A stretch of 64,000 nucleotides of DNA from Trichostrongylus colubriformis (taxonomy: Eukaryota; Nematoda; Chromadorea; Rhabditida; Trichostrongylidae): assembly GCA_963978905.1 (NCBI GenBank), contig OZ022257.1:20603664-20667663 (forward strand), read 5' to 3'. The position numbers and the translations under genes are program-made. Below are positions 15,541 to 53,600 of the stretch, piece after piece (positions within the stretch are counted from its first letter, which is position 1; every line of letters starts with the position of its first letter). Below the pieces are notes generated by a model, which was not told the DNA's origin, did not search any database, and was given only the letters and a program-made list of their open reading frames with translations.

Positions 15541-16343
15541 ATGGGGCCCATCCTTTCCATGATTAGTACACAACTGGAAAAAAGCAATTGTGTGTATAAC
15601 TTCGCAATTTCTTTCTTTCAGGCGTAGCTTTTAGCTTTTAGTCCTGTTTCATCACCACTTGAATTGCATTTCGATTCGGACCCCTACAAATTTGACGATG
15701 AGATTTTGCAGCAGAAACTCAGCTACAATTGAAATCGCCTTCCATTTTTAATGATTTAACCTGCCTTTTCTCTTTTGAATCATCTGCCTAGGTAGAAAGC
15801 TGGACTAATGGTAACGACAGCAGCGGTCGTCTCTTTTTGGAAGTGTTACAGTTCACGGGGTTGAGGTGTGTAATGAAAGCTTTGATAGCCGGAGTCTGAG
15901 TAGGAGGTATGCGCCTGTAACCACGTATGGCAATTGGTTATTATTTCTTTAAGTTCTAGTGGAACTCTGCACTACTGAGTGGTACGTATCTTATCCTGAT
16001 CAGCAGCTGTTTGAATTGTTAGAGAGCATTTCCAGATTTCTATTCTAGAGCATTTGAATGATTATTTTTATTCCATCTTCATCTCGTTGCCTTATGATTA
16101 CGTGCCTCAAGATTACTTGAATGAATGTTGATCCTGTCAGGTTAGCTTTCCGAAGGAACGTTTAAGAACCTCTTGTACTCTCGTTCACGAAACATTATCA
16201 GACAGATCTTTTGCCTCGTTGTATTGTTCTGAAAAAAAACGGATTCTCCATCGGATTTGTTTCTCAGTTTCACTGTTCTGTTTGTTTCGACTAGGCGCTT
16301 ATAGAGATCTCGATGTCAGATGGAATAGTAATGTGTATTTCAC

Positions 16344-16349
16344 TTTCAG
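16344..16349 (+). promoter_or_regulatory. Putative spliced-leader trans-splice acceptor
   Basis: TTTCAG sits 12 bases upstream of the ATG at 16362, with an AT-rich outron-like region before it. This spacing is usual for nematode trans-spliced genes. It could also be a cis acceptor of an upstream non-coding exon. Confidence 0.5.
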
Positions 16350-16361
16350 AATTCCATCAAG

Positions 16362-19480: not shown

Positions 19481-20760
19481 CTATTAGGTTGATTCATAAT
19501 AAATCGGACAAATTGACCAATTTTAATCATTGTCGTACAACTTTTTTACGACAACAGGGATTCACTTGAAATATACTACATTTTATCGATGACCTTCTGC
19601 CACGGTATAGGCAGATCATGGATGCCCTTGCTCCAGAAGGTCGTAAGCTGGAGCTCGAAGAAGTTGCCGAGTGCCGCCTTGACCTCGTCGCGAGTTTTGA
19701 AGTCTTGGCCGTCCAGGTGGCGTTGGCTGTGGGAGAAAAGGTGGAAATCTGAAGGGGCCAGGTCTGGGGAGTACGGTGGGTATAGAAGTACGGTCCAACT
19801 GTATGACAGCAGCTCGGCCTTAGTCGATCTTGCGAAGTGCGGTCTGTGGAAGTAGACACGTTGTCGTGCTGGAAGTAGACATGTGACCGCCGCCGTAGCG
19901 AACTTTGGACATTGGTCTTCAATTCTCGTAATTGACGAACGTAGACGTCGGCGGATACTGTGGTACCTTCATCGAGCAGCTCCCAGTACTCTACGCCGTG
20001 TACGCTCCACCAACCGCGGTTTTCGTCTTCGATGGAATAGTCGCCTGACGCAAACTTCGAATGCTACAACTACAGTGTACTTCTGCCGGGGGCATGCTCC
20101 TTGTGAACTTCCATCAGACGTCTGCCGATATCCGCGGGTTCCTGGCCAGATAGCGATATAAATAGTATGACGTTGCGGATGTGGTCTCTGGACCGCTTGA
20201 AATCGTGCGGCATTGAGGCGGAATGAATTTACTTTGGAGTGATTATTTTGCGGCACTTTGAAGAGCTTTTCATACTCATTCCAACGGTACCTCGCGCGTC
20301 CATTTTCGTTAATTCGTTACTGAGTTATGATCTCTAGAAATCATCACTACCATTTGTCCGATTTATTATGAATCAACCTAATACTATACTGCTGCAACTG
20401 CTATAGTAAATGCGCCTAATCCTCCTTCCATCGGGTGAACATATCTTCCCTATGTTCTGATATCTGCCGCCCATGTATCGACCGCTAAATTGCCCAGAAT
20501 TCCAAAAATGGTGCATGTCTTTTGTTGTAATAGCAAAGCAAGCGGTTCATTCTCTCATGCGATGGCACCAACAATACTAGTCTACCGCTAGTCTATCCAA
20601 AATTTTAAATAGTGGTGCATGTTTACAAAAACGATAAGCATCGATAATAGCATGTGGATACCACCAACATGTAGGAAATAGATGCTCAGCAACAAATTGC
20701 TACCATTTGATGCAGTTGAATCCAAAACTGTCGATCCCTAAACTCGTAAACTTCCATTAG
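19370..20760. repeat. Dispersed repeat family A, copy 2, split by a mariner
   Basis: 19370-19483 matches about 30-115 of the window (GATAACGGCTTACA, CTGATAAGA), and 20382-20760 matches about 110-535. The mariner 19484-20381 lies between the two parts, so the mariner inserted after the repeat. Confidence 0.65.
19484..20381 (-). mobile_element. Degenerate mariner-like element (898 bp)
   Basis: Termini TTAGGTTGATTCATAATAAA and its complement are flanked by TA on both sides (19482-19483 and 20382-20383). The minus strand carries scattered mariner transposase pieces in different frames (for example FQHDNV near the second catalytic Asp), with many frameshifts. About 400 bp shorter than a full mariner; not functional. 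Confidence 0.8.
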
Positions 20761-38634: not shown

Positions 38635-39420
38635 GTACTTTAGCAGATGACGGTAATTGTGGCAAAGGTCCGACTACTTCGCGTGTTTCGACACTTGATG
38701 GTGAGCTACCAACGACTTCAAATGAAGTTCCCGAGTCAGTGCCAGGTATTTTAGTCGTTTTGGTCCACTTTACCGCTAGTGATGTGCATTAAATTAGAGG
38801 CTTTTACGCATTTTGTTCAGCTCTCGAGAGAGATAGTGTCTTCCGTCGACATTATCATATAAACCTCACTGGAGAACTTTTCCGTGGGGTAGTCGTGGCC
38901 AGTAAAAGAGGAGTTCATCCCGTGATAAAATACCCTATTTCAGGTCAGTGCATGTGGACTCCAAATAAGATAAATCGGAATAGAATGTAATATTTTGTTC
39001 CCTTTTTAGGTGGTGAATACTGTTATGCGTTCGAGCAGGTGCGTACCACAAAGCGAGGACAAGTAGTCTACCGGTGCACAAGGTGTAAGAAGAACGGCAA
39101 CACAATTAGCATAGCAGTATTGTGTATGGAACTCTTTACACTTTGCGTTCAAATGGTTTGATATTTCAGGTGAAGAATGGTTGCGACTTCATTGGAGATC
39201 CCGCCCTCATCCCACATGTGTGCACTCCTTTGAAGTATGCACAAGACAAAGTGACCAGGATGGTGTATCAGGTTACTGCTTGGCATCAATTTGCATTTCT
39301 ACTTTTTTTTTATTTATTTCAGTGTTTTCAAAAAGCATATGGCATATTTAGTCGTGCCAAGCTATTGCAACTGAGCCACAACTGGCCCAAACGAAGCCCT
39401 GTCAGTTATGGCAGAGTATA
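38635..39420 (+). pseudogene. FLYWCH-like gene paralog, exons before the LTR insertion
   Basis: Exons 38635-38745, 38821-38943, 39010-39116, 39170-39271 and 39352-39420 match exons 2-6 of the gene at 16362-18446 in order, phase and nearly in length (123, 107 against 110, 102 nt). Conserved pieces are RGVHPVIKY, YCYAFEQ, YRCTRCKKNG and LIPHVCTPLK. Exon 6 is cut after 69 nt by the LTR retroelement. No exon with the mariner helix-turn-helix or the 60-bp repeats is visible upstream. The reading frames are otherwise intact, so the gene was probably functional until the insertion. Confidence 0.8.
39416..39420. repeat. Target-site duplication of the LTR element, left copy
   Basis: GTATA, repeated at 53596-53600. 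Confidence 0.85.
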
Positions 39421-39797
39421 GTAAGTAGCGCCGCACAGTGAAAGGTGTTTTGGAATACTTCTGTGAGAGAGATAAGATGATATACTAAAGTTTATCCAAA
39501 AGGACATAAATGGATGAAAGTACGGTAGATAACCAAACGAACGAAGATACGGTATGCAAGCTATAAGGCACAGAACATAGTAACAATGTCATACAAAAGT
39601 GAAGATCACAAGCGGCTTCTGTGGTAGGGGGCATCGCCCCAGATCGTGAGAGATGAAGCGAAACGTGCGTCCACGGGACACTTCGATGGCAGACCCCTCG
39701 CAGAAGCTCGCTGCCGCTCCTCCTCCTGAAAGCATTCACATGAGTCATCATGAAAACATGCGGTGCGGCGCTGGGAGATTGCGCCGTACCGCTCACA
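39421..39797 (-). repeat. 3' LTR (377 bp)
   Basis: On the element's strand it begins TGTGAGCGGTACGGC and ends CGCTACTTAC. It differs from the 5' LTR at four substitutions with no indels. Confidence 0.9.
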
Positions 39798-39809
39798 CCT
39801 CCCTCCTTT
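39798..39809 (-). other. Polypurine tract
   Basis: AAAGGAGGGAGG on the minus strand, directly before the TG of the 3' LTR, the expected place for plus-strand priming. Confidence 0.85.
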
Positions 39810-39875
39810 ACCCAAAGTCCGACCCGGACTTTCAAAGACAAGAAAGGCGGAAAAAAAGGAATGGGCTCACCAAGC

Positions 39876-42800
39876 TTAAGGCTGGGGAAGCCGCAAGTAG
39901 CGGGGTAGGTCCGAGGCGGGGACGATAGCATTGATAAACTGCGCCCACTGTAGTAGGCGTCCCCAGGATTGCATGTCCCTGAGGCTATGCGCGTGGCCGA
40001 ACACAAATTGGCCGTGTCGGCAGCGCGTGACGGCGACGTTGAGGCGACGATAGTCGTCCAGGAAGTCGGAGGTATCTGGAGACATTTCGGTTTTAGTGGA
40101 AAGCAAAATCACTACCTCCTTTTCGCGGCCCTGGACTGAGTCAACTGTCGTCACCTCAACTCCAAGGGCGTCCAAACGTGCCGCCATCAGCCGATATTGC
40201 TCCTTGTAGAAGGTGATGACGCACATGCTGGTCCGGGGAAGGCCCTTACTGAGCAGGTGCCCTATGAAGGTCGTCGCCACCTCAGCCTCATACAAGTTAT
40301 AGTGGGAGCGATTTGCTGCGCGTACCGATTCGCCGAATAAATCGACGAAAAGGAAGGGTATGCCAGGCGTTGGGAAATCCATGATATTCAGTAATAAGCG
40401 ACGCGTTTCCGGGCGCGTGCCGCTTACTAGCGTCCCATTGTAGGCCAGCTGGTTGGGTAATTGGATAAGGGAGGGGTGACACCTAAAAGTTGTTACAAGT
40501 GGGGCCACCGGGATAGCGGGTGCGCGAAGCAGAAGGGTCATGACGCCCCGAGCACCGTGCAAAACCGGGTTAGAGTCAGGGGGGCACTTGGAGTGCGGGG
40601 ACAACTGATGCACGTCCCCAATGTAGACGTGACGGGCGTCCTGTAACCGGACTGCTATGGCTAACAGAGCCGGCTCAGGAATTTGGGACGCCTCGTCCCC
40701 TATGACTACGCGGAAGGATGGAATATATGTTTTGAAGATGCCACCGGTCGCCGTTGAGTCGAGCAGCGATGAGGTGGTCATGCACAGCACTGAGGGTCGA
40801 TAAGAGCGGAAAAGGATGCGAACCATCCTTTTGAGGGTCAGCGAAACGAATTGTTCCGCTATCTCATACTCCGCCTTATCGTCGTCGGACATCTCGGGCA
40901 CCATGTGAGGGTGCTCGAGATAGTCCTCGAGAAGCTGTCGGCACGACTTGAACCGAGCACAAACCTCGCGCTCATCCTCATCCAATTCATCGCCCAACAC
41001 GTCGCCAAGGGTCTTGAGAACCTTATTAAGGTCGACAGACGTGGGGGTCAGATTGCCGGCCGCCGCTGTGTCGGAGATATGCCTCACTACTCGCAGCTTA
41101 GGGGAATCATCCAGCGAGAGGAGGGTCTCGGTGAATTGCGCCACAGCGGCATTAGTCGACGTTGTGACTATAACGGTGGAATTCGGCTCGACCGAGGAGA
41201 GCGCTGCAATAAGGGCTCCCACAAGTGTTTTCCCGGTGCCGAAGGCAGCCTGGATGGCCACCACGGGTAAGCGGGAGGTGCCAAGACGCACCGCTTCTGC
41301 TTGATCTACGGTCAGCGACACCGGACGACCGAATACGGAGTAGGTTTGAGGTGGTGGTGGTTGCGCGGCGGCGGGTCGATGGTGCCGTGCAGCGGCTCCT
41401 TCCTGCGCAAGGCTACCGTACACGAGGTCGATAAGCGTCGCGGCAGTGGAGGTCCACCTCAAACCTGCGAAAATATCGGTGTGGGAAACGAGGTCGTAGA
41501 TTGGGTCGGCCGCGGCGGCAGACTTGCACAAGCGGAGGCAGACATCAATTACGGTATCCGCCCCAACCGTGCGGCCGTACCGATCGATATCGTCGGTGAG
41601 GGAGTTGTTAGACCATCGGAAGGCCTGAAGAACCACTGTAAGAGTCCGATCCCTCGTGGCGGCCTGAACGTCTACGACTTTGAGGCGGATCAAACGGCTG
41701 GCGCCAGGAATCCATAGGACGGCCTGACGACCGGAGGTCCACCCCGCTTCGGAAGTCATATCCGACAGGACAACTCGCAGGCGCATAGGGAACCATTCCG
41801 GCGTTACGACCGTAGCCTCACTGCGGTGCGATCTACGGTCATCCTCTGCGGAATTTACGGCCGCCAGCGCAGAACAAGCGGCATTGCAGATTTTACCAAG
41901 CCGTTTTCTGGCGAGGTCTTTATCTGCTAGGTAGCTGGTGAAGTTATTGAGGCGGTCTGAAAGCCAGTCCCGCTCCTCCTGGGTGATGCGATCCACCGAG
42001 AGGGGCAAACTGCCCTCCTCGGGGTGCATTGGGAAGAAACAGCGCACGACGTTGGCCAGGTGGTCCCTTGCCCCAAAGGAAACGGGAGGTTCCGAGAACC
42101 GCATTGCCGACGAGACGTTCGCGCGCGAACAAGCGGACACGACCTCGTATAGGGCGAGCTGATCCATCGGGAAGGTGCAAAGGAAAGGGGTGATGGTGAC
42201 GGCTTCGGGGCAGCCTTCAAAAGCTGCCCGAGCCGAAATAACGCGGCCACGACGGGTGCCCAAGGACAGGATGATACCGTAAATGGGCTCCTCGCGGTCA
42301 GTGGGTTTTGCGAAAGCGAAGTGCGATGCTCTAAAAAAGTACACCGAGGAGGTGTCAAGAGCTGTCGTGCGGGGTATACGTGATTGCTCCAGGACGGCCG
42401 CGGGATCTTTGAGCGCCTGCCGCGTGGGTTTAACATTATACACCCACGCGGCAAGCGTCTTTACAAAGTCTTTAACGGAGACCAACGACCTGTTAAAGCC
42501 GCGGCCACCGCGCAAGATCTCAATGCCTTGCTGATCGAGGGTGATGCAATGGAGATCACGCCGGTCAGACCCGATAGCAAAGAAGTCCTTCACTTCTAAA
42601 ACGACGCCGGTGCCCCATCCGGTCGACACGATCTGATACAATACGGGACGGATGCCGTTCCACAGAGTGGGAGCGATGGCGTACGGATGCTCCGTAGATG
42701 ACGTCAGTGGCTGATCGGCAACGTCGATGTCGACGTAGGTACCTGCGAAGAGATCGTTAATAACCTGCAAGGACCGTTCGCGGAAAGCGAGCGAGTCTTC

Positions 42801-43847
42801 CAAATGGGGAACCTCAATGAAGGGGATCGCAATGGGAGGTCGATCCTGTCGTAGTGTTACCTGCGGAAAAAGAGATTTATTAAAACGAATAGAGAGATAA
42901 CCCGTGTCGGGTAAATGACGATAAACGTAGATGCTCAACGTGGTTACCACCGTGGGGAGTTGTTCCCGTAGCAAACGAGTGGGGCGAGGATTAATAAAGC
43001 GCGCCCAGGGATGGCGCTGGGCCAAATAATTGGTGTAGCCCAGGGGGGTCTGCCGGGGCAACTGGCTGATATTTACCTGTGGCAGCGAGTGAGGCGACAG
43101 CGGTCGCGGACGTTTGGCGCCTCGTGCACCTGCCCGAGAACCGCGGCGTGTGTTGCCGCGTACTGAACCTGTTCCTGAAGTGGAGGCCGATCCGGCCAGA
43201 GGTTGGATTGCAGTACCTTGCGTGGCGGGGCGCCCCGCGGAGGCTCGACGGGAGGTCGAACCGCGAGCCGGTTTAGCCTCGTGTGAGGTGCGTCCACGCG
43301 AGGAGGACGGAAGCTGTGCCGCGGGGGGCGCAGAGGGGGGTTGGTCACTAAGCTCCTGCTGAGAGACGCTGAGCTGCTCCATGGACGTGGTTTTGAGAGA
43401 CAACGGCTGTAGGTCGTCCTGCGATGGCAGCCCCTCAACGCTGGTGGCCCTTCTCTCCGACGTCAGTGATTGCGGAGAGCCGCGGTTGCGCGAGGAGACG
43501 CTGCTAGTACGCGGGCGCCTCGAGTTGGGCGGGGGTGTGTACGTTACCACAATAGGGGTCCTTGCGTATGGGTCCACCGCCAAAACCACTGGAGATTCCG
43601 GCGGAGCCGAGGTATCCATGGCTTCCGCGGAGGGCTCGCCGGGGCCACCCACAGGGACCTGGGCCGCATGGGTACTAGCTGAAGAAACATTATCTGAGGA
43701 AGTCGCGGACGACTTTTCTTCTTCAACGAAACGGTTCCGATGACATGTCGCATCGCGACGTTCAACTGAATGTTCTGAAACGGAAGAGTACCTGGATGTA
43801 CCATCCGTTGAGACGGAGCGCTCCGGTGACGGTGGAGGACGGTCCAT
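39876..43847 (-). CDS. Upf1-type superfamily 1 helicase encoded by the retroelement
   Basis: 1323 residues, uninterrupted. Residues 1-250 are Ser/Pro/Arg-rich and probably disordered. Residues about 260-840 contain no domain I recognise. The helicase core follows. The Q-like start is VSLTVDQAEAV, and Walker A is AAFGTGKTLVGA near residue 868. Motif II is VVIGDEASQIPEP near 1051, followed by YIGDVHQLSPH (motif III). Motif V is VDSVQGREKEVVIL near 1234, and motif VI is LNVAVTRCRHG near 1275. This set is that of the Upf1/Mov10/Dna2-like SF1B group (5'-3' helicases on RNA or DNA). The stop lies 66 bases from the polypurine tract, so the gene is inside the element. Its frame differs from integrase; expression from a separate spliced mRNA is inferred. 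A role in replication or in countering host RNA surveillance is speculation. Confidence 0.85.
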   Translation of the reverse strand: MDRPPPSPERSVSTDGTSRYSSVSEHSVERRDATCHRNRFVEEEKSSATSSDNVSSASTHAAQVPVGGPGEPSAEAMDTSAPPESPVVLAVDPYARTPIVVTYTPPPNSRRPRTSSVSSRNRGSPQSLTSERRATSVEGLPSQDDLQPLSLKTTSMEQLSVSQQELSDQPPSAPPAAQLPSSSRGRTSHEAKPARGSTSRRASAGRPATQGTAIQPLAGSASTSGTGSVRGNTRRGSRAGARGAKRPRPLSPHSLPQVNISQLPRQTPLGYTNYLAQRHPWARFINPRPTRLLREQLPTVVTTLSIYVYRHLPDTGYLSIRFNKSLFPQVTLRQDRPPIAIPFIEVPHLEDSLAFRERSLQVINDLFAGTYVDIDVADQPLTSSTEHPYAIAPTLWNGIRPVLYQIVSTGWGTGVVLEVKDFFAIGSDRRDLHCITLDQQGIEILRGGRGFNRSLVSVKDFVKTLAAWVYNVKPTRQALKDPAAVLEQSRIPRTTALDTSSVYFFRASHFAFAKPTDREEPIYGIILSLGTRRGRVISARAAFEGCPEAVTITPFLCTFPMDQLALYEVVSACSRANVSSAMRFSEPPVSFGARDHLANVVRCFFPMHPEEGSLPLSVDRITQEERDWLSDRLNNFTSYLADKDLARKRLGKICNAACSALAAVNSAEDDRRSHRSEATVVTPEWFPMRLRVVLSDMTSEAGWTSGRQAVLWIPGASRLIRLKVVDVQAATRDRTLTVVLQAFRWSNNSLTDDIDRYGRTVGADTVIDVCLRLCKSAAAADPIYDLVSHTDIFAGLRWTSTAATLIDLVYGSLAQEGAAARHHRPAAAQPPPPQTYSVFGRPVSLTVDQAEAVRLGTSRLPVVAIQAAFGTGKTLVGALIAALSSVEPNSTVIVTTSTNAAVAQFTETLLSLDDSPKLRVVRHISDTAAAGNLTPTSVDLNKVLKTLGDVLGDELDEDEREVCARFKSCRQLLEDYLEHPHMVPEMSDDDKAEYEIAEQFVSLTLKRMVRILFRSYRPSVLCMTTSSLLDSTATGGIFKTYIPSFRVVIGDEASQIPEPALLAIAVRLQDARHVYIGDVHQLSPHSKCPPDSNPVLHGARGVMTLLLRAPAIPVAPLVTTFRCHPSLIQLPNQLAYNGTLVSGTRPETRRLLLNIMDFPTPGIPFLFVDLFGESVRAANRSHYNLYEAEVATTFIGHLLSKGLPRTSMCVITFYKEQYRLMAARLDALGVEVTTVDSVQGREKEVVILLSTKTEMSPDTSDFLDDYRRLNVAVTRCRHGQFVFGHAHSLRDMQSWGRLLQWAQFINAIVPASDLPRYLRLPQP

Positions 43848-43891
43848 CTAGCATCAAAAATACAGATAGCTGTCGGGTTCACTACAATTAC

Positions 43892-43898
43892 CTGAAAA
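43892..43898 (-). promoter_or_regulatory. Candidate splice acceptor for a helicase mRNA
   Basis: On the minus strand GCTTTTCAG precedes the helicase ATG by 44 bases. TTTTCAG fits both cis and spliced-leader trans acceptors in nematodes. There is no start codon nearer upstream in frame. Confidence 0.45.
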
Positions 43899-44256
43899 GC
43901 AGCTGTATTATAAGAGGAACCGCAATGATGTGGTAAAAAACGAGCTGCGAAAAAAAGAGGAAGGAAAACTCGCGAAATCAAGATAGTAATAGCGAACTTA
44001 ATGACGAAAATTCGACATACAGCGAAAACATGAGTGCGCGTAAAGGAGGAAAAAAGAAAAAGGTTAGTTGTAAAGAGGAGTAAAAAGTGAATAAAACGCG
44101 TCGATAGAATGAGAAGGAATTGCTTCAGGATGCTGATGAAAGTGTTATCGGAATCACGATCAGTCAATACGAAGAGGTGGCGAGCCGAACGGCGGGGAGC
44201 TGCCTGCTCTCTGAAAAAAAAGGAAGGGAAACGGCTTCTGAGAAAGGACCAACCGG

Positions 44257-45370
44257 TCAGATCGATGTTCGTCGACCCCTGAAACGAGTGTTATATGAGT
44301 GGGAAGCGCCAGCGGGCTGAGGCGGCTGGGGAGTTGGTTCTGTGACCGAGTGATCGTAGCCATCTATGGCGCGATCACTTGCCTCGCTGGCGGTGAGCGC
44401 AAGGTGTTCTACCTCTGGCAGCCATGGTGTAGTAAAAACAGGGCCAGAGAGAATATTGCACCGTTTAACCTGATTCATGTGCACCTTTTTAGGGGTGGAT
44501 TGTGGCGACGAGACACTAAGAATGGTGAGGTGGGGAGGATTGACTTCAAGGACTCGAAATTGCCCCAGCCACGGGTAGCAAAGTTTTTGAGAGAGACCTA
44601 CGGTGGGTTTTAGATTGCGAAGGTACACCCGATCGCCCACCCTGATAGGAAGGGGTTCTAAATGTGTACGATCGTATTGTTTCTTGTAGGCCTCACGCTG
44701 ACGGTCGTTGCAGCGAGCGGCAGCGCGCCAAGCGGCGTGAAGCGTCGAAACCAAATTTTGAATATAGAGTGCAGAATCGTCGAAAGACGTAACGTGGCGT
44801 TTGGAATCATGCCTGATGAGAAGGTCCACGTTAAGGACGGGATCGCGACCAAACATCAGAAAGAAGGGTGTGTTGTTGGTGCTGGAATGAATAGATGTGT
44901 TATACATGAATGCGCAAGCTGAGACAAATCGATCCCAGTCCAGTTGATTCTCATTGATATATGTTCGTAACATGGGGTGGAAAGAAGCAAAAATGCGTTC
45001 ACATGCCCCATTCCCTTCGTGGTGGTAAGGGGTACAGAAGTACCTGTGGATTCGAAGAAAGCGTCCTATTTGTGACATGACCTCGCCAGTGAAGTAGGAC
45101 GCATTATCTGAAACAAGTTTTGTCATAACACCGAACTTCAGAATACATTCAGATACTATCGCCTGAGCTACAGTAACCGCGGTGCAGTCCGGGAGCGGCA
45201 CGGCAATGACATATTTAGAATAGTGATCGATCATAGCAAGTATGTATTTGTTGCCGGCCGCTGAGGTGTGAAGGGGGCCCGTGAGGTCGACAAATACTTT
45301 GTCGAAAATAGCACCGCTAACCACCGGGATAAGTTGTTCTGATTTCTTTGGTTCGGGCGCTTGCGCTGAC
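44257..45370 (-). CDS. Integrase catalytic core and C-terminal domain (after a frame change)
   Basis: The frame opens before 45423 but the integrase homology begins at about 45365 (APEPKKSEQL). Catalytic residues are VDLTGPL (first Asp), LVSDNASYF (second Asp) and, 35 residues later, the Glu of EGNGACE: the D-D35-E triad. The C-terminal part has RVGDRVYLRNL and YPWLGQFRVLEV, a GPY/F-like module. No chromodomain is evident. The zinc-binding HHCC segment is encoded by the preceding frame (up to WACEPCQRK), so one nucleotide has been gained or lost near 45355-45365. It is either a mutation, a sequencing error, or a ribosomal shift site. Confidence 0.8.
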
Positions 45371-48236
45371 AAGGTTCGCATGCCCACACAAGGGCAAAGA
45401 CGTCCTCGGCCATGTGCGGCCAAAAATATTTACGTGCTATTTTGGCCAGCGTCTTCCGCCAGTTAAAGTGGCCACCGGACGAGGGGCTGGTGTGAAAAGC
45501 GAGGAATATAGGTTCCCTGAGCTTTTCGGGTACAACTAAGCGTTCTGATCGGAAGGGGGAGTCTGGTATCAAACGGTCGTTGTAGTATAGGCACCCGTTT
45601 CGCCGTGAGACGCACTTTTCTGCAATTTTGAGCCAAGCGGCTGTTTGTTGTTCGCTGAGGTTGTCCGGGAAGCGCTGAGTTTCGATGAAAAGCGTGATCG
45701 CTGCGCCAAAGGGGTCTTGCCTTTGTTCTTGGAGCGCGTCGTAAGGACGGATGGCATGGATGGTGCCGAGACAAAGGACGGTCGGGCGAACAGAGTAGGT
45801 TGGTGCTTGCAGAGTATTGATGCTCACGGGGAATTCCACAATGTCCTCTGCCTCCGGCGTGCCGTCTTGGAAGCGGACCTTTGGATTAGGGGCCCGGGAG
45901 AGAGCGTCTGCTACCACATTTGAAGATCCTTTTAAGTATTCAATGGTGACGTCGTAACTTTGTAACTCCACTACCCAGCGTGTGAGGTTGTCGTGCGTTT
46001 TGTGATGGGTGAGCAGGAACGTGAGCGGACGGTGGTCGGAGAAAATAGTGGTGTGATTCCCATAAATGGTGGTACGAAAAAATCGCAGTGCGCTTATTAT
46101 AGCAAAGAGTTCAATGTGTGTGGGACTCCATTTCTGCTGGGAATCGGACAAGGCCTTACTGAAGTATCCTACCGCGACCAATTGTTTATCGGAGTCGGAG
46201 CTGCGCTGAAAGAGGGCTGCACCGACGGCAGTCTGGCTGCCATCCGTATGGAGAAAAAACTCCTTATCCTGTGGGAAAGCCAGGCACGGCTTGGAGACCA
46301 AAAGGAGTTTGAGACGTTGGAATGCCTCTTCTTGTTCCTGTCCCCAAATAAACTTTGCCTTGTCTTTCAAAAGACCATATAGGGGGGAAGCTATCAGAGC
46401 AAAATTGGCAATAAATTTGCGGAAGAAATTGGCCATACCCACGAATCCTTTGACTGCTTTCACCGACGTGGGAGTGGGGAATTCTTGAATGGCTCGGATG
46501 TTCCTTTCGGCTGGCGAGTAGAAGTTACCGGAGATTTCGTGTCCTAAAAAATTGATACGTGAGCGAGCGATCTCCGTAAGTTTCTTACCAGAAGCCTTGA
46601 TATTGTACAAGCGGAACCTGTAGAATACTTTACGTAGGGACTCCAGATGGCTAGGGAAGTCTTTATCGAAAATGACGATATCGTCTAAATACGCCAGGCA
46701 GTTAGATTCCAGCCCGGCAAGGATCCGGGCCATGGCCCGCGAGAAGTACGCTCCTGCATTTTTGAGACCGAACGGGAGGTAGACGAATTGGTAAATCCCA
46801 CGATGGGTGGCCCATCCGCACTTTTCCTGGCTTTTGGTCGATAGCAATAATTGCATGTAACCAGACGCTAAGTCTAGCGTCGTGTAGAACTTGTGCCCTG
46901 AGATTTTAGCGAGAATGTCCTCTATTCGTGGCAAAGGATAATGATCCGGGATGGTCACGTCGTTAAGGGGGCGAAAGTTCAGGCAAACGCGGAGAGATCC
47001 ATCCTTTTTCTTAACCAAAACAGTGTTATGGACCCAGGGAGTGTCACTTTCGACTATCCGACCGGCCTGGAGCAGCATATTGATATGATCGTCAAGTTCT
47101 TTCTGAAATTTTATCGGGATGCGGGGAGGCCGAAACCGGGTCGGAGGGCACTCCGTAGTGGTCCGAATTACGATTTCGGAGTCTTCGTAGGAGCCTAGAT
47201 CGTAGGACCCTGAGGAGATCCGGTCCCTGAATTCCCGAAACAACTGAGCCAGTTGTTCTCGTTCGCTTTCAGAGACCTCGGCATGGGAAAGATCGACCGA
47301 GTACGATTCCAAACGGTTCTCGACACTAGGGCGGTCCGCCCGTGGTAAAACTTCGCCAACGAAAGGGGGTGGCGACAGGTGGTTGAACTCGGATAAGGTG
47401 GAATCGTCGCCCTGCAAAAGGGGGACGGCAGATGAAATCTGCTGTCCTTTATACAGGATCTCCGATCGGGGAGAAGGGTTAGCCACCAAGAGGAGTGGGG
47501 TGCCCGATCGAACTACGGCCGGTGTGACCATTAGGGACTTATCATACAGCTGTGCGCTCTGGGCCACGAGCATAAGCGAGGGGTGATCGTTGTGGTCCGT
47601 TATGCAACGGACAAAGGTTTCAGTGGATGGCGGGAGTACGGTAGTTTCAGCGACTCTGACGGTGGTCAGCTGATCGGAAGGGGGCGTGGCCGAGTCGACC
47701 TGGTCTGGGGTGGCGCACAGTATCCTCACCTGTTGGTCCGCCATAGTAAACGTGCGGTTACCGTAATCAATGGACCACGAGGGGAGTTTCCTCAGTAAGT
47801 CATTACCTAGGATGATGTTATAGGCGTTGGCCGCTTCTGGGATGCATGCGGAGTCGGTGAAATAGACGGCATGCGTGAAAGAGAGGGAACCAATTTCAAA
47901 AACGAGGGGTGCGCACCCGAGAAGTTGGACAGGAATCCCAGCCATTCCCACGGCCCTAGTGACGTCGCTGCGAGACAGTTGGAATACCCCTAATAACGGC
48001 GCTGTAGTAGCGGTGGTGACCGTAATAGAAGCCCCGGTGTCCACTAGGGCCAGTATGCGAATGCCGTTGACCCTGATCGGGATCTGGGCTACAAAGAAAC
48101 GATCGTGTCCGGTCAAATACAAAACGTTGACAGGACTGAGTGTTGCGCGGGGTGGCCACGATGAGGTTGCATCTATCTCCACTTGGGCCAACTCAATGGA
48201 TTCCGAGGCGGGTTTCACGGAAATGGGAGGAGGCAT
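45231..48236 (-). CDS. pol: Pol: protease, reverse transcriptase, RNase H and integrase zinc-binding segment
   Basis: 1001 codons, open. Protease: ALVDTGASITV with the DTG at residues 66-68. RT: VLVKKKDGSLRVCLNFRPLN and NCLAYLDDIVIF, the YLDD box near residue 513. RNase H: FFLHTDGSQTAVGAAL near 660. Integrase H-H-C-C: HTSPSSGGHFNW then ACEPCQ near 950. After CQRK the frame runs out of register and stops. It shares its frame with the last env segment (48653-48291), from which it is separated by a TAG at 48291-48293 and an open linker, so readthrough is conceivable. The ATG at 48236 is the first in frame after that stop; protease may start there or upstream. Confidence 0.9.
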   Translation of the reverse strand: MPPPISVKPASESIELAQVEIDATSSWPPRATLSPVNVLYLTGHDRFFVAQIPIRVNGIRILALVDTGASITVTTATTAPLLGVFQLSRSDVTRAVGMAGIPVQLLGCAPLVFEIGSLSFTHAVYFTDSACIPEAANAYNIILGNDLLRKLPSWSIDYGNRTFTMADQQVRILCATPDQVDSATPPSDQLTTVRVAETTVLPPSTETFVRCITDHNDHPSLMLVAQSAQLYDKSLMVTPAVVRSGTPLLLVANPSPRSEILYKGQQISSAVPLLQGDDSTLSEFNHLSPPPFVGEVLPRADRPSVENRLESYSVDLSHAEVSESEREQLAQLFREFRDRISSGSYDLGSYEDSEIVIRTTTECPPTRFRPPRIPIKFQKELDDHINMLLQAGRIVESDTPWVHNTVLVKKKDGSLRVCLNFRPLNDVTIPDHYPLPRIEDILAKISGHKFYTTLDLASGYMQLLLSTKSQEKCGWATHRGIYQFVYLPFGLKNAGAYFSRAMARILAGLESNCLAYLDDIVIFDKDFPSHLESLRKVFYRFRLYNIKASGKKLTEIARSRINFLGHEISGNFYSPAERNIRAIQEFPTPTSVKAVKGFVGMANFFRKFIANFALIASPLYGLLKDKAKFIWGQEQEEAFQRLKLLLVSKPCLAFPQDKEFFLHTDGSQTAVGAALFQRSSDSDKQLVAVGYFSKALSDSQQKWSPTHIELFAIISALRFFRTTIYGNHTTIFSDHRPLTFLLTHHKTHDNLTRWVVELQSYDVTIEYLKGSSNVVADALSRAPNPKVRFQDGTPEAEDIVEFPVSINTLQAPTYSVRPTVLCLGTIHAIRPYDALQEQRQDPFGAAITLFIETQRFPDNLSEQQTAAWLKIAEKCVSRRNGCLYYNDRLIPDSPFRSERLVVPEKLREPIFLAFHTSPSSGGHFNWRKTLAKIARKYFWPHMAEDVFALVWACEPCQRKRPNQRNQNNLSRWLAVLFSTKYLSTSRAPFTPQRPATNTYLL

Positions 48237-48290
48237 AATGGCTAAGGTTTGAACCGCCGGGGATGGTCGTGGACCAGAGGCTCGAGTTGG

Positions 48291-48660
48291 CTAAGGAAAC
48301 TGTTTCTGAAGTATGGGCAACCAGCCCGGGTAATATATGGTACAGTACAGAATGAGAATAGTTTTCAAAATAGAAAATGAAACAACGAGGCAACATAGTG
48401 ATATCCACATGTCAAAGGGGGTCCATGACCCAAAAATGGTGGACCAAAGAGAAAATGAATACGGTGTTAAAGCAGTAGGGTTAAGAGAAGAAGGCGATGA
48501 TGAGGGTGAAGCGGCACGCACAAAATGCTCTGGAGTAATGGAAGACCACAACTCAGACCACTGGTGCTCTTGGACTAACTCGCTCAAATTCGTGAGGACT
48601 AAATTGTGGAAGATAGTGAGAGGTAAGGCAAGAGCAGACGCATAGAGGAACAAGGTACCG
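48291..48660 (-). pseudogene. Env-like C-terminal segment with membrane anchor
   Basis: About 120 codons in the pol frame. A leading helical region is followed by a Ser/Pro-rich stretch and a strongly hydrophobic segment (MWISLCCLVVSFSILKTILI) suited to a membrane anchor, then a short tail. It continues the env-like region but is shifted by -1 (or +2) relative to the gag/env frame; the switch lies within the overlap 48599-48660, where no canonical slippery heptamer was seen. It ends in TAG at 48291-48293. Confidence 0.6.
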
Positions 48661-49105
48661 AAGAAGCCTCCGTGGACAAGACCCGACTCGAAGGATCAAT
48701 AAATAGGTGTAACATCATACCACTTGGTAAGGTAATTTCAACCCGTGGACGTGAAAAGCATGTACCATTGAAAGGGATGAGACGGAGATGATGCGGGGGC
48801 ACGGACATGCAGCGATGAATTTTCAAAAGGTTGTTACCCAGAAAAGAAGCTGCGATGTCCTGGCGGCCCAGAAGGTGGCGAAGGGTAGGGGTAGGATTCA
48901 AAGATAGGGAAGCATGAAGGGAGAATGCTAGAATATTGGTACGGTCACATAAGGAAGAAAGGGAATGTTGGAAGAGAGCCGATAAGGATGACGCCACGGA
49001 CCCTTCAACCGCTAACAATTGAGCCGCCAGTTGGTTGGAGGTAACTATGCCAGCGTCCGCTGCGTGAGAGCGCGGGACACGGCTGACGACTGCGACACCG
49101 TACCC
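48599..49105 (-). pseudogene. Env-like middle segment after an amber stop
   Basis: In the same frame as gag, following a TAG at 49106-49108. It opens immediately (GYGVAVVSRVPRS, NQLAAQLLAVEGSVASS) and runs to 48599. The content (heptad-like leucines, FNGTCFSRPRVEI) fits a continuing glycoprotein ectodomain. The single stop is either an inactivating change or a readthrough codon. Confidence 0.6.
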
Positions 49106-51295
49106 CTAGTCACTGTAGGTGAGAAGAGCTCCGCAGTCCTGAATGCGCTCACTGGAATCACGCCAGGATAAGGCGAATTCCTTGGAATCACTTATCCAGA
49201 CTTCTCCCAGTTGCTGTCCCCTCATTTTCATGATGGGGATGAAGCGGCAAGTTTCTTCTTGGTTGGGGGTCCACTGCAGCATGGAGCCATCCTTTAGAAG
49301 GCAGCTACCAGATCTATAGCTGCAGTGTGCGAGGTTCCCTGCGGGCGAGTCCGGAGAGGAGGAACCGTAACGAGTATGGACAACGGTCGGCACAAGATAG
49401 CAATTAGAAGCGGAAACCGTGCGGACCGTGCAACAGCCGAAGGGCGCGCTAGGCCATTCGAAGGAGAGGGAATTAGAGGTGGCCCAAACGCCATCGCTGT
49501 GAGAGAGGGTTCCGAATGTACAGATATGATGTTGTCTCATGAGCGTGCAGGCTTCGCGCGAGACAATGGAATGGGTCTCGCTGCGGTTTTCGAAACGCGA
49601 CCCAAAGAAGTTTACGGAATAGGAAATCGTTTGGGTTACTATCTTGCACAAATGAGCTGGGGTGTCATAGCGCTGCGTGTTGGGGCGGTAGACGTGGATG
49701 GTGAGGGGTCGGGGAGGCGCATCAAATGTTGGGATTAAACGAGAACAATTATAAGAATTTGGAATATGAATAATAGCATCGTTCTCGTCGTGTGGGCAGA
49801 GCCACGCCGACATAGGAGTCGCCTCACTCAGGCGACAGCACAGTAACATGCATATAGGTAGAAAGGATTTAACATGAGGTAAAGAAGGTGGTTGAGGATT
49901 CGAAGAAGAGTGAGAACGAGGGGGACTATCTCCGAAAGAGGTCTTTGCCAGCTCGTCATTGCGCCTGACCAGAGCGTCTATCCGGGCATCAGACCGTTGC
50001 AAAGCTGTTTGATTTTCACGCAGAGAGATAGAGAGCGCGTTAATTTGCTCGCGGGCTTGCAAAAGTTCCTGATTATGATCACGTCGTGAAAAACTATTAA
50101 GATGAGATGCGGAAGAAGAAGGCACAATTCTATCACGAGAACGAGTACGAAAAGCGAACCTGTCTGTGTTCCGTCGAGGAATACGAGGTGACGGGCAGAG
50201 TCTTGACATGTGTCCAATACCACCACAGTTAAAGCAGGTAGAATTCGGTCCAGGTTGTTGCGGACGTGCTGATGGGCGATTTCCACGTCTCTGAAAAGAT
50301 CTAGATGAATTCCTGGTAAAATCCGTTGGTGGCCGATTATAGGGTGGTCCCCGAGGATCGGGTCGTGGAGCCATGGCCGCCTTCACTTCGATTGGCGGGT
50401 GAGCGCTTGCAGGGCGGATGAGGCGATCCGCTGTGGCCTCAGCTAGAAGCTGCTCTACCATTTGGGCTTTAGCTACTGCCTGCTCGAAGGTTAAGGGATT
50501 GTCTAATTTCACGTAGTACCGAATATCTGGTCGCAGCCGGGCCACGAATTCTTCAAGCACCCGCTCCTTTTGGCTGGTCGCATCTTGACCGGCGGTAGCC
50601 GCCCGCACTAAGAGAAGCAAGCGGTTAGCGAAAGTCGCGGAGGATTCTCCAATCTGTTGCTGGCAGGACGAAAGAGACTGGCGAGCCATATAACGGTGTT
50701 GCGGACCTTCAAAAGACTGCTTTAGATGGGCCACAATAGTGGCAAAGTCTTCGCGTTCTTCATCTGTAAGTTCCTCCACCTTTTCACGGGCTATCCCATC
50801 AGGATTTCCAATCAGAAAATAAGCTTTCTGTTGGGCAGTCCACGAGGTGGGTCTCATGCGCATTAGGTCCTCGAGGCGTCTGAGCCAAAGGGAAAATTGC
50901 ATGGGGTCTTCGCTCGAACCCGTAAAAGGGGCCACCCGAGGTAAGGAACTTTCTGCACCCAGTGTGGCCACCACTGGGATCGAATTGATACGGTCTCCGA
51001 CGACTGCAAACGAGTGATTAAGGTCAGAAAGCAGGTTAGAGTTACCTTCGTTGATGCGCTTGGTCAACGCTGCGGTGTCCATTTTGGAGTCGTTCCGGGC
51101 CTCGGCGATGGCCAGCACCGTGGCGTCCCGTAAGGACTTCTCGTCTCTGCCGCGAACGTTGGCATGGTCATCCAGATCCGCTAATACAAGCGCGAGATTA
51201 TCAGATGCGGACGGAGGAGAACCGGTTCCTGAGATTGGGGCAACCGCCCGAGAGTCCACCGAAGTGGCACGAGAGCGGGTCACTGGAGGACCCAT
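49106..51295 (-). CDS. gag: Gag fused in frame to the start of an env-like glycoprotein
   Basis: 729 codons. Residues about 110-290 form a capsid-like region (PFTGSSEDPMQFSLWLRRLE, EEFVARLRPDI). An RNA-binding zinc knuckle, CFNCGGIGHMSRLC (CCHC), lies near residue 350. A Gln/Leu-rich coiled-coil-like stretch follows. From about residue 478 the character changes: a hydrophobic leader (SFLPICMLLCCRLSEATP), then a Cys-rich ectodomain with several Asn-x-Ser/Thr sites (SYNCSRLIPTF, FGSRFENRSETHS). This resembles envelope glycoproteins of nematode retroelements; the viral source is not determined. Fusion of env to gag without an intervening stop is unusual, since env normally lies after pol. A spliced env mRNA is possible. 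The ATG at 51295 is the first good start of the frame. Confidence 0.8.
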   Translation of the reverse strand: MGPPVTRSRATSVDSRAVAPISGTGSPPSASDNLALVLADLDDHANVRGRDEKSLRDATVLAIAEARNDSKMDTAALTKRINEGNSNLLSDLNHSFAVVGDRINSIPVVATLGAESSLPRVAPFTGSSEDPMQFSLWLRRLEDLMRMRPTSWTAQQKAYFLIGNPDGIAREKVEELTDEEREDFATIVAHLKQSFEGPQHRYMARQSLSSCQQQIGESSATFANRLLLLVRAATAGQDATSQKERVLEEFVARLRPDIRYYVKLDNPLTFEQAVAKAQMVEQLLAEATADRLIRPASAHPPIEVKAAMAPRPDPRGPPYNRPPTDFTRNSSRSFQRRGNRPSARPQQPGPNSTCFNCGGIGHMSRLCPSPRIPRRNTDRFAFRTRSRDRIVPSSSASHLNSFSRRDHNQELLQAREQINALSISLRENQTALQRSDARIDALVRRNDELAKTSFGDSPPRSHSSSNPQPPSLPHVKSFLPICMLLCCRLSEATPMSAWLCPHDENDAIIHIPNSYNCSRLIPTFDAPPRPLTIHVYRPNTQRYDTPAHLCKIVTQTISYSVNFFGSRFENRSETHSIVSREACTLMRQHHICTFGTLSHSDGVWATSNSLSFEWPSAPFGCCTVRTVSASNCYLVPTVVHTRYGSSSPDSPAGNLAHCSYRSGSCLLKDGSMLQWTPNQEETCRFIPIMKMRGQQLGEVWISDSKEFALSWRDSSERIQDCGALLTYSD

Positions 51296-53202
51296 GAGAG
51301 CACCAAGTAATATGTCGTACAGTAGAAGCTGAGTGACGATTAATGAATGAAGAAATGGCCGGCACCCAACTTATGTAGTCTTCGCGGAGATGGGGCGGAG
51401 CCAACCAATGAGTGGGCTGCCGCTACCGTAACCCTAGCCGGGTTCAAATTCCACATGTGCTGCCAGGGGGTGAGATCAGATAAGGGGATGCATAAGTAAG
51501 AGAATAAACATGAGAAGCATAATCTGATGGAATGCTTGGGAAGGATAACATCAGATAAAAAGAATGTTTACGGGTAAGAAATCATGTGGGAAAGGGACAG
51601 CGAAGCCTTGCCGCGGAGATGCTACCCGAGAAGCGCGAGAAGAAACAAAACATCGTTATGCGACAAGAAGATCCGCATGAAATGTTAAAAGCTTTGTACT
51701 TTTCTGCATGAAGTATGACGTCAACGGAGAAAGAAATGAACGGTGAGAGAAAACGGGTTAGGATGGTGCGAAAATCTTAGTGGGGGCCAAAGTGGTAGTA
51801 AGTACACGTGAGGAACAGAGGATACGAAAAGAAAGACGATAATGGTTGCAGTATACTAGGAGAAGGGGAATATAGGATAATAATGTTGTAATAGTAGCAA
51901 TGAAGGATGGGGGAAATCAAGGGCAGCATGATTTGTCGGTAAGAGGACCAAAGGGTATGATCCGCGACCCCATCAAGGAGAATGGTCCCCATACTGGGTG
52001 CGAGATGGCAATGTATTCGACGATTGCAATCGGGCAGACCCGCACAAAGGACGATGCGCCTTGCACGCGGTCTGGCGGGCAGATGTCTCGTCAGGTCGGG
52101 AAGGAAAGTTCAGAACTCAAACGAAAAGAGATGGTAGAAAACGGCTTGGAAGTAGGGGGCTATATTTGCCCGGCAGGCGTTTCCACATGCCATGACCGTT
52201 TTCTCAGCTCACGAGCGCGGTAGCCGGTGCCGTGAAGTTCTAAACGGGAAGATAGGGTACTAATTTAGGGTACTGAACTCCTCCGAAAGGAGGCGAAAAC
52301 AATGGGGAGAGCACGACAAACAGAGGAAGATACTGCCCAACAAGAAACCTGAGATCAAGTTACCAAACTTTTCCTGAACGAGGGCCCCTCGGGCCAAGGA
52401 AACTCCCACCCGATAGGCGGGGAAGTCCAGGCGAACTGAGATATACATATCTATTTATATATAGATAGTTAGCGATTAAATGAGAATTTTTTTGGGTCCG
52501 TAGTGGACTATTTTCGGTTATATATACATGTTATATTAGATCGAGAACGAAAAGAGGCTTTCAAAACAAAGGACCCGGGTCAGCGAAATTTTCACCTAGT
52601 TTACCGCACCGAAGAGGACATAATCCATTGGCTAGCCACCGAAATGCCGCGAGTACATGAAAATTCTAATAAATCTCAACATTCAACTTACAGAGCACTC
52701 TTTGCGCGGCCACACTGTCATCCGTTTCACCTAGGTGCACCCATCTACGATTCCACAACTACTTTATATCATCATACACAAGGCTCAATCCAACTATCGC
52801 TCAAGCTCGGCCAATTACTTCTCTTTTTTTTTGCGCGCCGGGGAGAAGTAGACGGTTTAGTCCCATGTCTAGGGGTTCGCATGCGAATTTGAAAAAATTG
52901 GGACAAAGGGGTACCGTACCACGATGACTCATGGATGTGCCGTTCCACGAGTTCCCAACTGCCTAAAACAAAGAAGCCAGGATTTCTATCCGCGAAAGAA
53001 AGAAAAAAAGGAAGTCAGAGGCAGAAGCTCTGATACGGTACTCTTTGTCCGGAGTCTGCTGGAAGGGCGAGTTTTTCGAATGCCGTAAAAGGTCAGCTAC
53101 CCACAACTCGCGAGCCGGCCGACTCGCACCAACAGAACTGACCAAGAAGACATAAGGAAAACTATTTACCCTCAAACCCACAGAGACAGCGAGGGGGGAA
53201 AA
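51296..53202 (-). other. Retroelement 5' leader
   Basis: About 1.9 kb between the primer-binding site and gag with no convincing coding region. It is long compared with most gypsy leaders and may hold packaging, promoter or splice-donor signals, none of which I can assign. Confidence 0.6.
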
Positions 53203-53218
53203 CCACTCGCTGCTACCA
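53203..53218 (-). other. Primer-binding site
   Basis: TGGTAGCAGCGAGTGG on the minus strand, starting immediately after the 5' LTR. It would pair with a tRNA ending CCACTCGCTGCTACCA; the tRNA identity is not determined. Confidence 0.75.
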
Positions 53219-53595
53219 GTAAGTAGCGCCGCGCAGTGAAAGGTGTTTTGGAATACTTCTGTGAGAGAGATAAGATGATATACTAAAGTTTATCCAAAAG
53301 GACATAAATGGATGAAAGTACGGTAGATAACCAAACGAACGAAGATACGGTATGGAAGCAATAAGGCACAGAACATAGTAACAATGTCATACAAAAGTGA
53401 AGATCACAAGCGGCTTCTGTGGTAGGGGGCATCGCCCCAGATCGTGAGAGATGAAGCGAAACGTGCGTCCACGGGACGCTTCGATGGCAGACCCCTCGCA
53501 GAAGCTCGCTGCCGCTCCTCCTCCTGAAAGCATTCACATGAGTCATCATGAAAACATGCGGTGCGGCGCTGGGAGATTGCGCCGTACCGCTCACA
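53219..53595 (-). repeat. 5' LTR (377 bp)
   Basis: TGTGAGCGG...GCTACTTAC on the element's strand. Identical to the 3' LTR except for four substitutions. Confidence 0.9.
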
Positions 53596-53600
53596 GTATA
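53596..53600. repeat. Target-site duplication of the LTR element, right copy
   Basis: GTATA, matching 39416-39420. Confidence 0.85.

What the first reader, a model, noticed from the sequence alone, without database searches (positions are those of the whole stretch)
39421..53595. LTR retroelement with a superfamily 1 helicase after integrase
An intact 1323-residue Upf1/Mov10-type helicase lies between integrase and the polypurine tract of a recently inserted Ty3/gypsy element. I know of no standard gypsy, BEL or copia element with such a gene. The helicase frame is open while env and integrase are broken, and the LTRs differ at only four positions. The gene may serve replication of a 14 kb genome, or counteract host RNA surveillance or small-RNA silencing, in which Upf1- and Mov10-type helicases act. 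The functional idea is inference; gene order and motifs are visible.
Basis: partly seen in the sequence, partly recalled or inferred. Interest (0 to 1): 0.95.

Follow-up and report, generated by a model that had tools for sequence, protein, structure and literature searches.

The report
Nematode retroelements carrying their own helicase
In a worm genome, a lineage of virus-like jumping genes carries, as its last gene, an extra enzyme of the type cells use to check and unwind RNA, and selection has kept that enzyme intact.

Summary
The window (nematode: 905 exact SL1 sites) contains a Ty3/gypsy element on the minus strand. Its 378-bp LTRs differ at four positions and are bounded by a 4-bp target duplication. 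An open 1323-codon SF1 helicase lies between integrase and the polypurine tract. It is not a one-off capture: the genome has at least 34 other places with relatives (40-98% identity). Of 30 loci fetched (the window's own included), 23 have stop-free frames of at least 1000 codons, 24 show integrase just upstream, and 28 show a PPT/LTR-start pattern downstream. Helicase and integrase distances correlate (r = 0.985). dN/dS is 0.06-0.52 in 28 close pairs (pooled 0.24 in nine pairs). LTR pairs enclose it in six subfamilies. Its core is closest to UPF1, but UPF1's zinc-binding domain was not detected. A splice-acceptor motif starts 18-113 nt before the start codon in 10 of 10 subfamilies read, as for CERV of Cer1, which occupies the same position and exports genomic RNA. 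My best mechanism (inference): a helicase from a spliced mRNA that exports or protects the unspliced genomic RNA. Nine open-access literature searches showed no such element. New variant of a known kind.

The parts
53218..53595 (-). 5' LTR (378 bp)
   Evidence: 378-bp match to the 3' LTR with 4 mismatches; GTAT duplication 53596-53599
53200..53217 (-). primer binding site, GGTAGCAGCGAG..., same first 12 bases in five other subfamilies; tRNA not identified
   Evidence: other subfamilies
49900..51370 (-). gag (capsid-like region, CCHC zinc knuckle at about 50189-50239)
   Evidence: Pfam zf-CCHC 6e-06; Ty3_capsid 4e-04, below cut-off; frame 49109-51370 46% identical over 717 aa to the gag-env frame of L036
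48300..49873 (-). env-like region between gag and pol, spread over several frames here, in one frame with gag in L036
   Evidence: only weak Monjiviricetes_fusion/Glycoprotein_B matches below cut-off; limits approximate
47790..48083 (-). aspartic protease
   Evidence: Pfam gag-asp_proteas 1e-04, below cut-off
46533..47015 (-). reverse transcriptase
   Evidence: Pfam RVT_1 7e-22; Ty3 RT structure 3.9e-92
45954..46346 (-). RNase H
   Evidence: Pfam RT_RNaseH 7e-27
45022..45533 (-). integrase zinc domain and catalytic core (two frames)
   Evidence: Integrase_H2C2 1e-16, rve 7.5e-11
43892..43897 (-). predicted splice acceptor TTTCAG, starting 50 nt before the helicase ATG
   Evidence: such motifs in 10 of 10 subfamilies read
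39876..43847 (-). SF1 (UPF1-like core) helicase ORF, 1323 codons plus stop
39814..39832 (-). hairpin AAAGTCCG..CGGACTTT just before the PPT, conserved in most of the lineage
39798..39809 (-). polypurine tract AAAGGAGGGAGG
39420..39797 (-). 3' LTR (378 bp)
   Evidence: GTAT duplication 39416-39419

Best explanation
The window holds one recent insertion of a nematode Ty3/gypsy lineage whose usual genome is LTR - gag - env - PR-RT-RNaseH-IN - helicase - PPT - LTR. The helicase is an old accessory gene inherited along with the rest of the element (shown). I propose that it is translated from a spliced or SL trans-spliced mRNA, using the acceptor just before its start codon (sequence evidence only). 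I further propose that its ATP-driven, UPF1-like core binds the element's own unspliced genomic RNA and strips or replaces host surveillance proteins. That RNA, whose integrase stop is followed in the window by about 4.5 kb before the 3' LTR, could then leave the nucleus and escape nonsense-mediated decay (inferred). In that role it would do what CERV does for Cer1, and what HIV-1 gets by recruiting host UPF1.
For: Element gene: of 30 fetched loci (window included), 24 have integrase in the 1.5 kb upstream and 28 a PPT/LTR-start pattern downstream. Of 45 scored RT places, 27 have a listed helicase downstream, 8 more on reading and 6 more in the AAA_12 list. Integrase and helicase distances correlate at r = 0.985 in 21 loci, 0 of 2000 permutations reach it. 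LTR pairs around it in six subfamilies, 97-100% identical within each pair. Selection: nine pairs, each with an excess of synonymous change (p 0.005 to 1e-14), pooled omega 0.24, core 0.18. Helicase motifs conserved with few exceptions. Own mRNA: TTTCAG-type acceptor motif starting 18-113 nt before the ATG in 10 of 10 subfamilies read; a first exon and intron in phase with the helicase frame in L014, L015, L016 and L017. UPF1 is the best solved match. Precedents: CERV (PMC10309623: abstract, passages, section 15) lies between pol and 3' LTR, comes from a spliced mRNA with a verified TTTCAG acceptor and is needed for genomic-RNA export; HIV-1 recruits UPF1 for genomic-RNA export (PMC4693258: abstract).
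Against: No RNA, protein or biochemical data; splicing is predicted from motifs. In the L023 group I chose a later ATG than the first one in the frame; the first has its nearest acceptor motif 283 nt away. No in-phase first exon was found in L010, L012, L013 or L022. A nuclear localisation signal is not general: K/R clusters before the conserved region in 18 of 30 loci, none in L005-L013. Three RT places keep open 2402-codon frames while their helicase is deleted or broken, so it is not needed in cis, or those copies are recent casualties. UPF1's regulatory domains were not detected. The deepest copy read (L062) has lost the Walker A lysine.
Confidence: 0.5

Rival explanations
1. The helicase is packaged or acts at reverse transcription: it unwinds RNA structure and RNA-DNA hybrids to help RT copy and strand-transfer a 14-kb genome, or remodels the particle RNA.
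For: The genome is long (14,176 bp from LTR to LTR). Viral SF1 helicases unwind RNA-DNA, and this was proposed for TRAS LINEs (PMC5563155, passages). The gene is kept with integrase over long divergence.
Against: In the window it is a separate gene with its own ATG, in a frame that does not continue integrase, so packaging would need a further signal. Most gypsy elements and retroviruses do without one (recalled).
Confidence: 0.22
2. The helicase is a silencing suppressor: it removes small-RNA effectors or antisense RNA from element transcripts, countering piRNA/22G-RNA pathways in which SF1 helicases act in worms (recalled).
For: The helicase diverges faster than the integrase part compared (mean distances 0.45-0.51 versus 0.37), as expected for a gene facing the host. 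The silencing-suppressor idea for retroelement helicases is in print for insects (PMC5563155, passages).
Against: dN/dS shows constraint over the gene, not positive selection. No small-RNA data.
Confidence: 0.2
3. Passenger: a host helicase was captured once and is now carried without function.
For: LTR elements do capture genes (PMC6431247, passages); some copies have the helicase deleted or broken.
Against: Purifying selection in all nine pairs tested; stop-free frames of 1000 or more codons in 23 of 30 loci; motifs conserved at about 40% identity.
Confidence: 0.03
4. Assembly or annotation illusion: a host helicase family lies by chance near retroelements.
For: A nematode genome paper reports an expanded set of helicase-domain genes (Haemonchus, PMC4054779, passage).
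Against: LTR pairs with 4-bp duplications enclose it. The order IN-helicase-PPT-LTR recurs at many genomic sites.
Confidence: 0.01

Closest known systems
CERV of Cer1 (Ty3/gypsy, Caenorhabditis; PMC10309623)
   Same: Accessory gene between pol and 3' LTR of a nematode Ty3/gypsy element; own spliced mRNA (shown for Cer1, predicted here); TTTCAG acceptor
   Different: CERV is described there as unlike any known retroviral protein, with a G-protein-like domain; the word helicase does not occur in that text. The sequences were not compared here
UPF1/NAM7 SF1B helicases
   Same: Best solved match to the core (2e-54 for a 13-member profile); motifs DEASQ, TVDSxQGRE, RxNVAxTR
   Different: No UPF1 zinc-binding or 1B domain listed by Pfam; Walker A reads QAAFGTGKT; about 560 conserved residues of unknown fold before the core
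SF1H domains in TRAS/Jockey LINEs and Copia fusions of insects (PMC5563155, passages)
   Same: A retroelement that encodes an SF1 helicase, kept over long times in the LINEs
   Different: Those are virga-like viral helicases fused into LINE ORFs, or fusions with Copia proteins in two insects. Here the Pfam viral model scores below cut-off for the window protein, and the gene is a separate ORF of an LTR element lineage
Extra ORF3s (DEDDy, GDSL) of bdelloid LTR retrotransposons (PMC5408684, passages)
   Same: Enzymatic accessory ORF in LTR elements
   Different: Other enzymes; that paper reports no significant departure from neutrality within genomes, whereas here constraint is strong
Burro giant gypsy elements of planarians (PMC6431247, passages)
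   Same: env-like domain in frame between gag and pol
   Different: Much larger polyprotein with other extra domains; the passages I saw (12 of 18 places) report no SF1 helicase for Burro

Membership tests
Ty3/gypsy (Metaviridae) | PR-RT-RNaseH-IN order in pol | tested here: met
   (protease match below cut-off)
Ty3/gypsy (Metaviridae) | RT closest to Ty3 among solved structures | tested here: met
   7q5b 3.9e-92, 4ol8 1.3e-82; next 8r0s 4e-43
Ty3/gypsy (Metaviridae) | LTRs, short target duplication, PBS after 5' LTR, PPT before 3' LTR | tested here: met
   4-bp duplication in 6 of 6 subfamilies with both LTRs read (a seventh, L028: 5' LTR not found)
Errantivirus-type gypsy | env as separate ORF after pol | tested here: not met
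   env-like region lies between gag and pol in the window and L036; the post-pol gene is the helicase
SF1 helicase superfamily | Walker A, DEAx box, motifs III-VI | tested here: met
   exceptions: L002 frame ends before motif IV, L062 lacks the Walker A lysine, L063 has DNAS
UPF1 | best match of the helicase core | tested here: met
UPF1 | N-terminal cysteine-histidine zinc-binding domain | tested here: not met
   no such Pfam match listed for 13 of 13 members at E up to 0.1; a very diverged domain could be missed
MOV10 | Mov10-specific domains or best match | tested here: inconclusive
   no Mov10 entry among Pfam or PDB matches; whether a MOV10 structure is in that PDB copy was not checked
Viral (alphavirus-like/virga-like) SF1 helicase | Pfam Viral_helicase1 above cut-off | tested here: inconclusive
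   window protein 17.7 bits against cut-off 21, not met; all 13 members match weakly, best E 5e-05 (bits not shown); AAA_12 far stronger
CERV-like export regulator (function) | gene between pol and 3' LTR | tested here: met
CERV-like export regulator (function) | translated from a spliced mRNA | tested here: inconclusive
   acceptor motifs in 10 of 10 subfamilies, in-phase intron in 4 of 8 loci tried; no RNA data
CERV-like export regulator (function) | nuclear protein needed for genomic-RNA export | not testable with these tools
   needs experiment

The most novel reading that the evidence does not exclude
A lineage of virus-like nematode retroelements (gag, env and pol in one frame) has evolved its own dedicated RNA-surveillance-type helicase as a regulatory gene, an in-house counterpart of the host UPF1 that retroviruses must recruit. 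The expanded helicase set annotated among host genes in parasitic nematodes such as Haemonchus may in part be these element genes.
Probability: 0.35. Interest if true: 0.87.

Novelty: new variant of a known kind. Interest (0 to 1): 0.78.

Why it matters
Retroviruses are known to lean on host helicases; that HIV-1 encodes none is stated in PMC3484045 (abstract start in a search listing only). A lineage that has kept its own long enough for one deep copy to be only 25-27% identical gives a natural system for asking what a helicase does for an LTR element, and whether escape from RNA surveillance or export control is the limiting step. It also warns annotators that helicase gene families in nematodes may be mobile-element genes.

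Tried and rejected
Host single-copy gene: rejected. The helicase search gave 37 matches in 35 places (35 of 620 first-look candidates scored) and AAA_12 gave 151 (150 of 303 scored, list cut). Of 20 AAA_12 places that I picked and read, 17 are 48-100% identical to an element helicase over the stretch aligned, two (L045, L060) 32-38%, and one (L048) has no match and looks like a host helicase.

Phages and IMG/VR viral contigs: no relative. Structure of the helicase from the single sequence: mean pLDDT 36.5, useless, so no fold search was made; the fold of the conserved 560-residue region before the core stays unknown. A 2598-aa 'gag-helicase' frame (L042) is an artefact of N letters. A nuclear localisation signal as a general feature: not supported. 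tRNA primer: not identified. L028's 5' LTR was not in the stretch fetched. Of 45 RT places, L034 shows no helicase (the pol match there ends early) and 3 were not inspected. RT places beyond the 45 best scored, and so gypsy elements of this genome that might lack the gene, were not examined. No tree against cellular helicases was built. Copies of the deep L062 lineage could not be searched. Nine literature searches aimed at such an element (several lists cut) and one on UPF1 and retroviruses covered open-access PMC text only; most papers listed were not opened. Subscription papers and Repbase are not covered. One search read the frames of minus-strand loci on the wrong strand; one search replaces it for frames (its integrase hits stand). 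One search failed on a missing file and was rerun.
Full report
WHAT IS THERE. The window lies in contig C3 of a 331-Mb genome in 52 contigs that has 905 exact copies of the nematode SL1 leader and none of its reversed control, so the host is a nematode; no species name was available. On the minus strand, 39420-53595, is an LTR element. The 378-bp LTRs differ at 4 positions. A 4-bp duplication GTAT flanks them (39416-39419, 53596-53599). The PBS GGTAGCAGCGAG.. follows the 5' LTR and a PPT precedes the 3' LTR. Pol is Ty3-like: RT/RNase H matches a Ty3 structure at 3.9e-92, with RVT_1, RT_RNaseH, Integrase_H2C2 and rve domains. Gag has a CCHC knuckle. Between integrase and PPT lies an open frame of 1323 codons with SF1 helicase motifs. 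The rest of the window gave no match to the element by blastn (E 1e-3) or tblastn of its frames (E 1e-2). Two of seven other long frames match mariner-type transposase models.

ENV. In L036, upstream of the pol of another subfamily (L023), gag, a hydrophobic signal-like stretch, a long intervening region, a second hydrophobic stretch and the first part of the pol frame run in one frame of 1129 codons that reaches the end of the stretch. The window's corresponding pieces lie in several frames. So an env-like region lies between gag and pol. The one parallel I saw in print is Burro of planarians (PMC6431247, passages). Family matches of this region are weak and below cut-off.

THE HELICASE IS AN ELEMENT GENE. 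A search of the own genome with the helicase gave 37 matches in 35 places, the window's own included, with 35 of 620 first-look candidates scored. Of the 30 loci fetched (window included), 23 have stop-free frames of 1000 codons or more, one (L004) a shorter one of 798, and six have one or two stops. Integrase is found in the 1.5 kb upstream in 24 of 30, in a few as short pieces. Of the other six, L004, L010, L012, L013 and L019 have RT upstream, in L019 overlapping, and L009 has a gag piece. A PPT/LTR-start pattern follows in 28 of 30; L015 and L026 do not match it. In seven groups of two or more close copies, likeness ends about 460-650 nt after the helicase stop (in L002, whose frame is cut short, further on), where the copies part into different genomic DNA: the end of the 3' LTR. 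Seen from RT, 27 of 45 scored RT places have a listed helicase downstream on the same strand. Of the other 18, eight of the nine stretches I read contain helicase pieces, six more have an AAA_12 match up to 5.2 kb downstream, one (L034) has none, and three were not inspected. The window's LTR has 28 matches, among them two further pairs around helicase-bearing copies and several single, apparently solo, LTRs. In five further subfamilies the 5' LTR was found: L006 257 of 257 aligned bases identical, L023 354 of 354, L021 484 of 485, L012 324 of 328, L016 two mismatches and one gap in 348. The 4-bp duplications read from the flanks agree in each. L028's 5' LTR was not in the stretch fetched. So elements with this gene have moved recently in several subfamilies.

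CO-INHERITANCE AND SELECTION. For 21 loci with enough integrase sequence, integrase and helicase distances correlate at r = 0.985, and none of 2000 permutations reaches it; near-identical copies are among them and raise r. 29 pairs of copies exceed 70% identity. 28 have a ratio, dN/dS 0.059-0.519, the highest from a pair with only five changes; one pair has no synonymous change. In nine pairs that I chose without repeating a locus (pairs of one subfamily may share branches, and some members hold stops) synonymous changes exceed neutral expectation each time, p 0.005 to 1e-14. Pooled omega is 0.24 overall: 0.33 for the tail, 0.24 for the conserved region before the core, 0.18 for the core. Motifs are conserved at about 40% identity with few exceptions. 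Results against: three RT places with open 2402-codon frames (C1:8994620, C1:40132552, C6:48903028) have a deleted or broken helicase; the deep copy L062 (helicase 25-27%, integrase 41% identity) has lost the Walker A lysine.

WHAT KIND OF HELICASE. A 13-member profile finds UPF1 (2e-54), NAM7, a '5'-3' RNA helicase-like protein', SEN1, DNA2, ZNFX1 and SMUBP2 in that order of strength. Pfam lists AAA_11/AAA_12 for 13 of 13 but no UPF1 zinc-binding, UPF1 1B or Mov10 domain. About 560 residues before the core (window residues 267-830) are conserved and match nothing in these searches. A single-sequence fold was useless.

HOW IT MAY BE MADE. A TTTCAG-type motif starts 18-113 nt before the helicase ATG in 10 of 10 subfamilies for which a start codon could be read (L001, L003, L006, L012, L015, L016, L021, L023 group, L028, L030). 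In the L023 group I took a later ATG, not the first in the frame. L004, L009, L018, L019 and L026 were not counted because the start is unclear. The density in the same loci's first kilobase is 0.31 per 113 nt, so ten of ten would be rare by chance (about 2e-6 by the Poisson rule, my arithmetic, taking related subfamilies as independent). In L014, L016 and L017 a 29-codon exon with a donor, and in L015 a 30-codon one, is in phase with the acceptor and the helicase frame; L010, L012, L013 and L022 gave none. CERV of Cer1 has the same position, a spliced mRNA and a verified TTTCAG acceptor, and is needed for export of the unspliced genomic RNA (PMC10309623: abstract, passages, section 15). HIV-1 uses host UPF1 for that step (PMC4693258, abstract). 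Hence my preferred mechanism: a self-encoded UPF1-like remodeller that lets the unspliced RNA be exported and survive. Shown: gene, place, conservation, selection. Inferred: splicing, RNA target, export or decay role.

NOVELTY. Extra enzymes in LTR elements, SF1 helicases in LINEs and single Copia-helicase fusions are known (PMC5408684, PMC5563155, passages). A separate UPF1-like helicase as a conserved gene of a Ty3/gypsy lineage did not show in nine searches of open-access PMC text. The Haemonchus genome paper notes an expanded set of helicase domains (PMC4054779, passage); that these are element genes is my guess. I rate it a new variant of a known kind.

Noticed in passing
window 39814-39832; L003, L004, L006, L012, L016, L019, L021, L023, L028, L030, L062: A short hairpin (GTCCG-loop-CGGAC, stem extended by A-T or, in L028/L030, C-G pairs) sits just before the PPT in 12 of 12 chosen representatives, even in the deep L062 copy; L009 and L018 lack it. 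Possible cis signal.
   Followed up: partly
window 48300-49873; L036 2934-6320: env-like region between gag and pol, in one frame with gag in L036, with only weak matches to known fusion proteins.
   Followed up: partly
L063 (C3:41935000-41942000) and C3:41904772: Two places with open 1090-codon relatives of the helicase. The one read (L063) has altered motifs II (DNAS) and V (QSRE), no integrase match upstream and no PPT pattern downstream: possibly host-adopted or decayed.
   Followed up: partly
L062 (C1:36539000-36545500): Deep relative with integrase, helicase, hairpin, PPT-like tract and LTR-like start, but Walker A lysine replaced; further copies could not be searched.
   Followed up: partly
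C1:8994620, C1:40132552, C6:48903028: RT places with open 2402-codon frames whose helicase is deleted or broken; the gene may be supplied by other copies.
   Followed up: no
LTRs of L001, L004, L012, L016, L021, L023: AP-1-like TGACTCA/TGAGTCA site in the LTR, seen by eye; not seen in L006, L009, L028.
   Followed up: no
L016, L021, L009, L030 just after the helicase stop; LTRs: Donor-like GTRAG motifs right after the helicase stop and TTTCAG-like motifs inside several LTRs: a possible 3' intron that would remove hairpin and PPT from the mRNA.
   Followed up: no
window 16332-17132 (+) and 19530-20063 (-): Mariner-type transposase pieces (HTH_48, Transposase_1).
   Followed up: no
C1:31903223-32083790: Tandem SL1 copies about 450 bp apart.
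   Followed up: no
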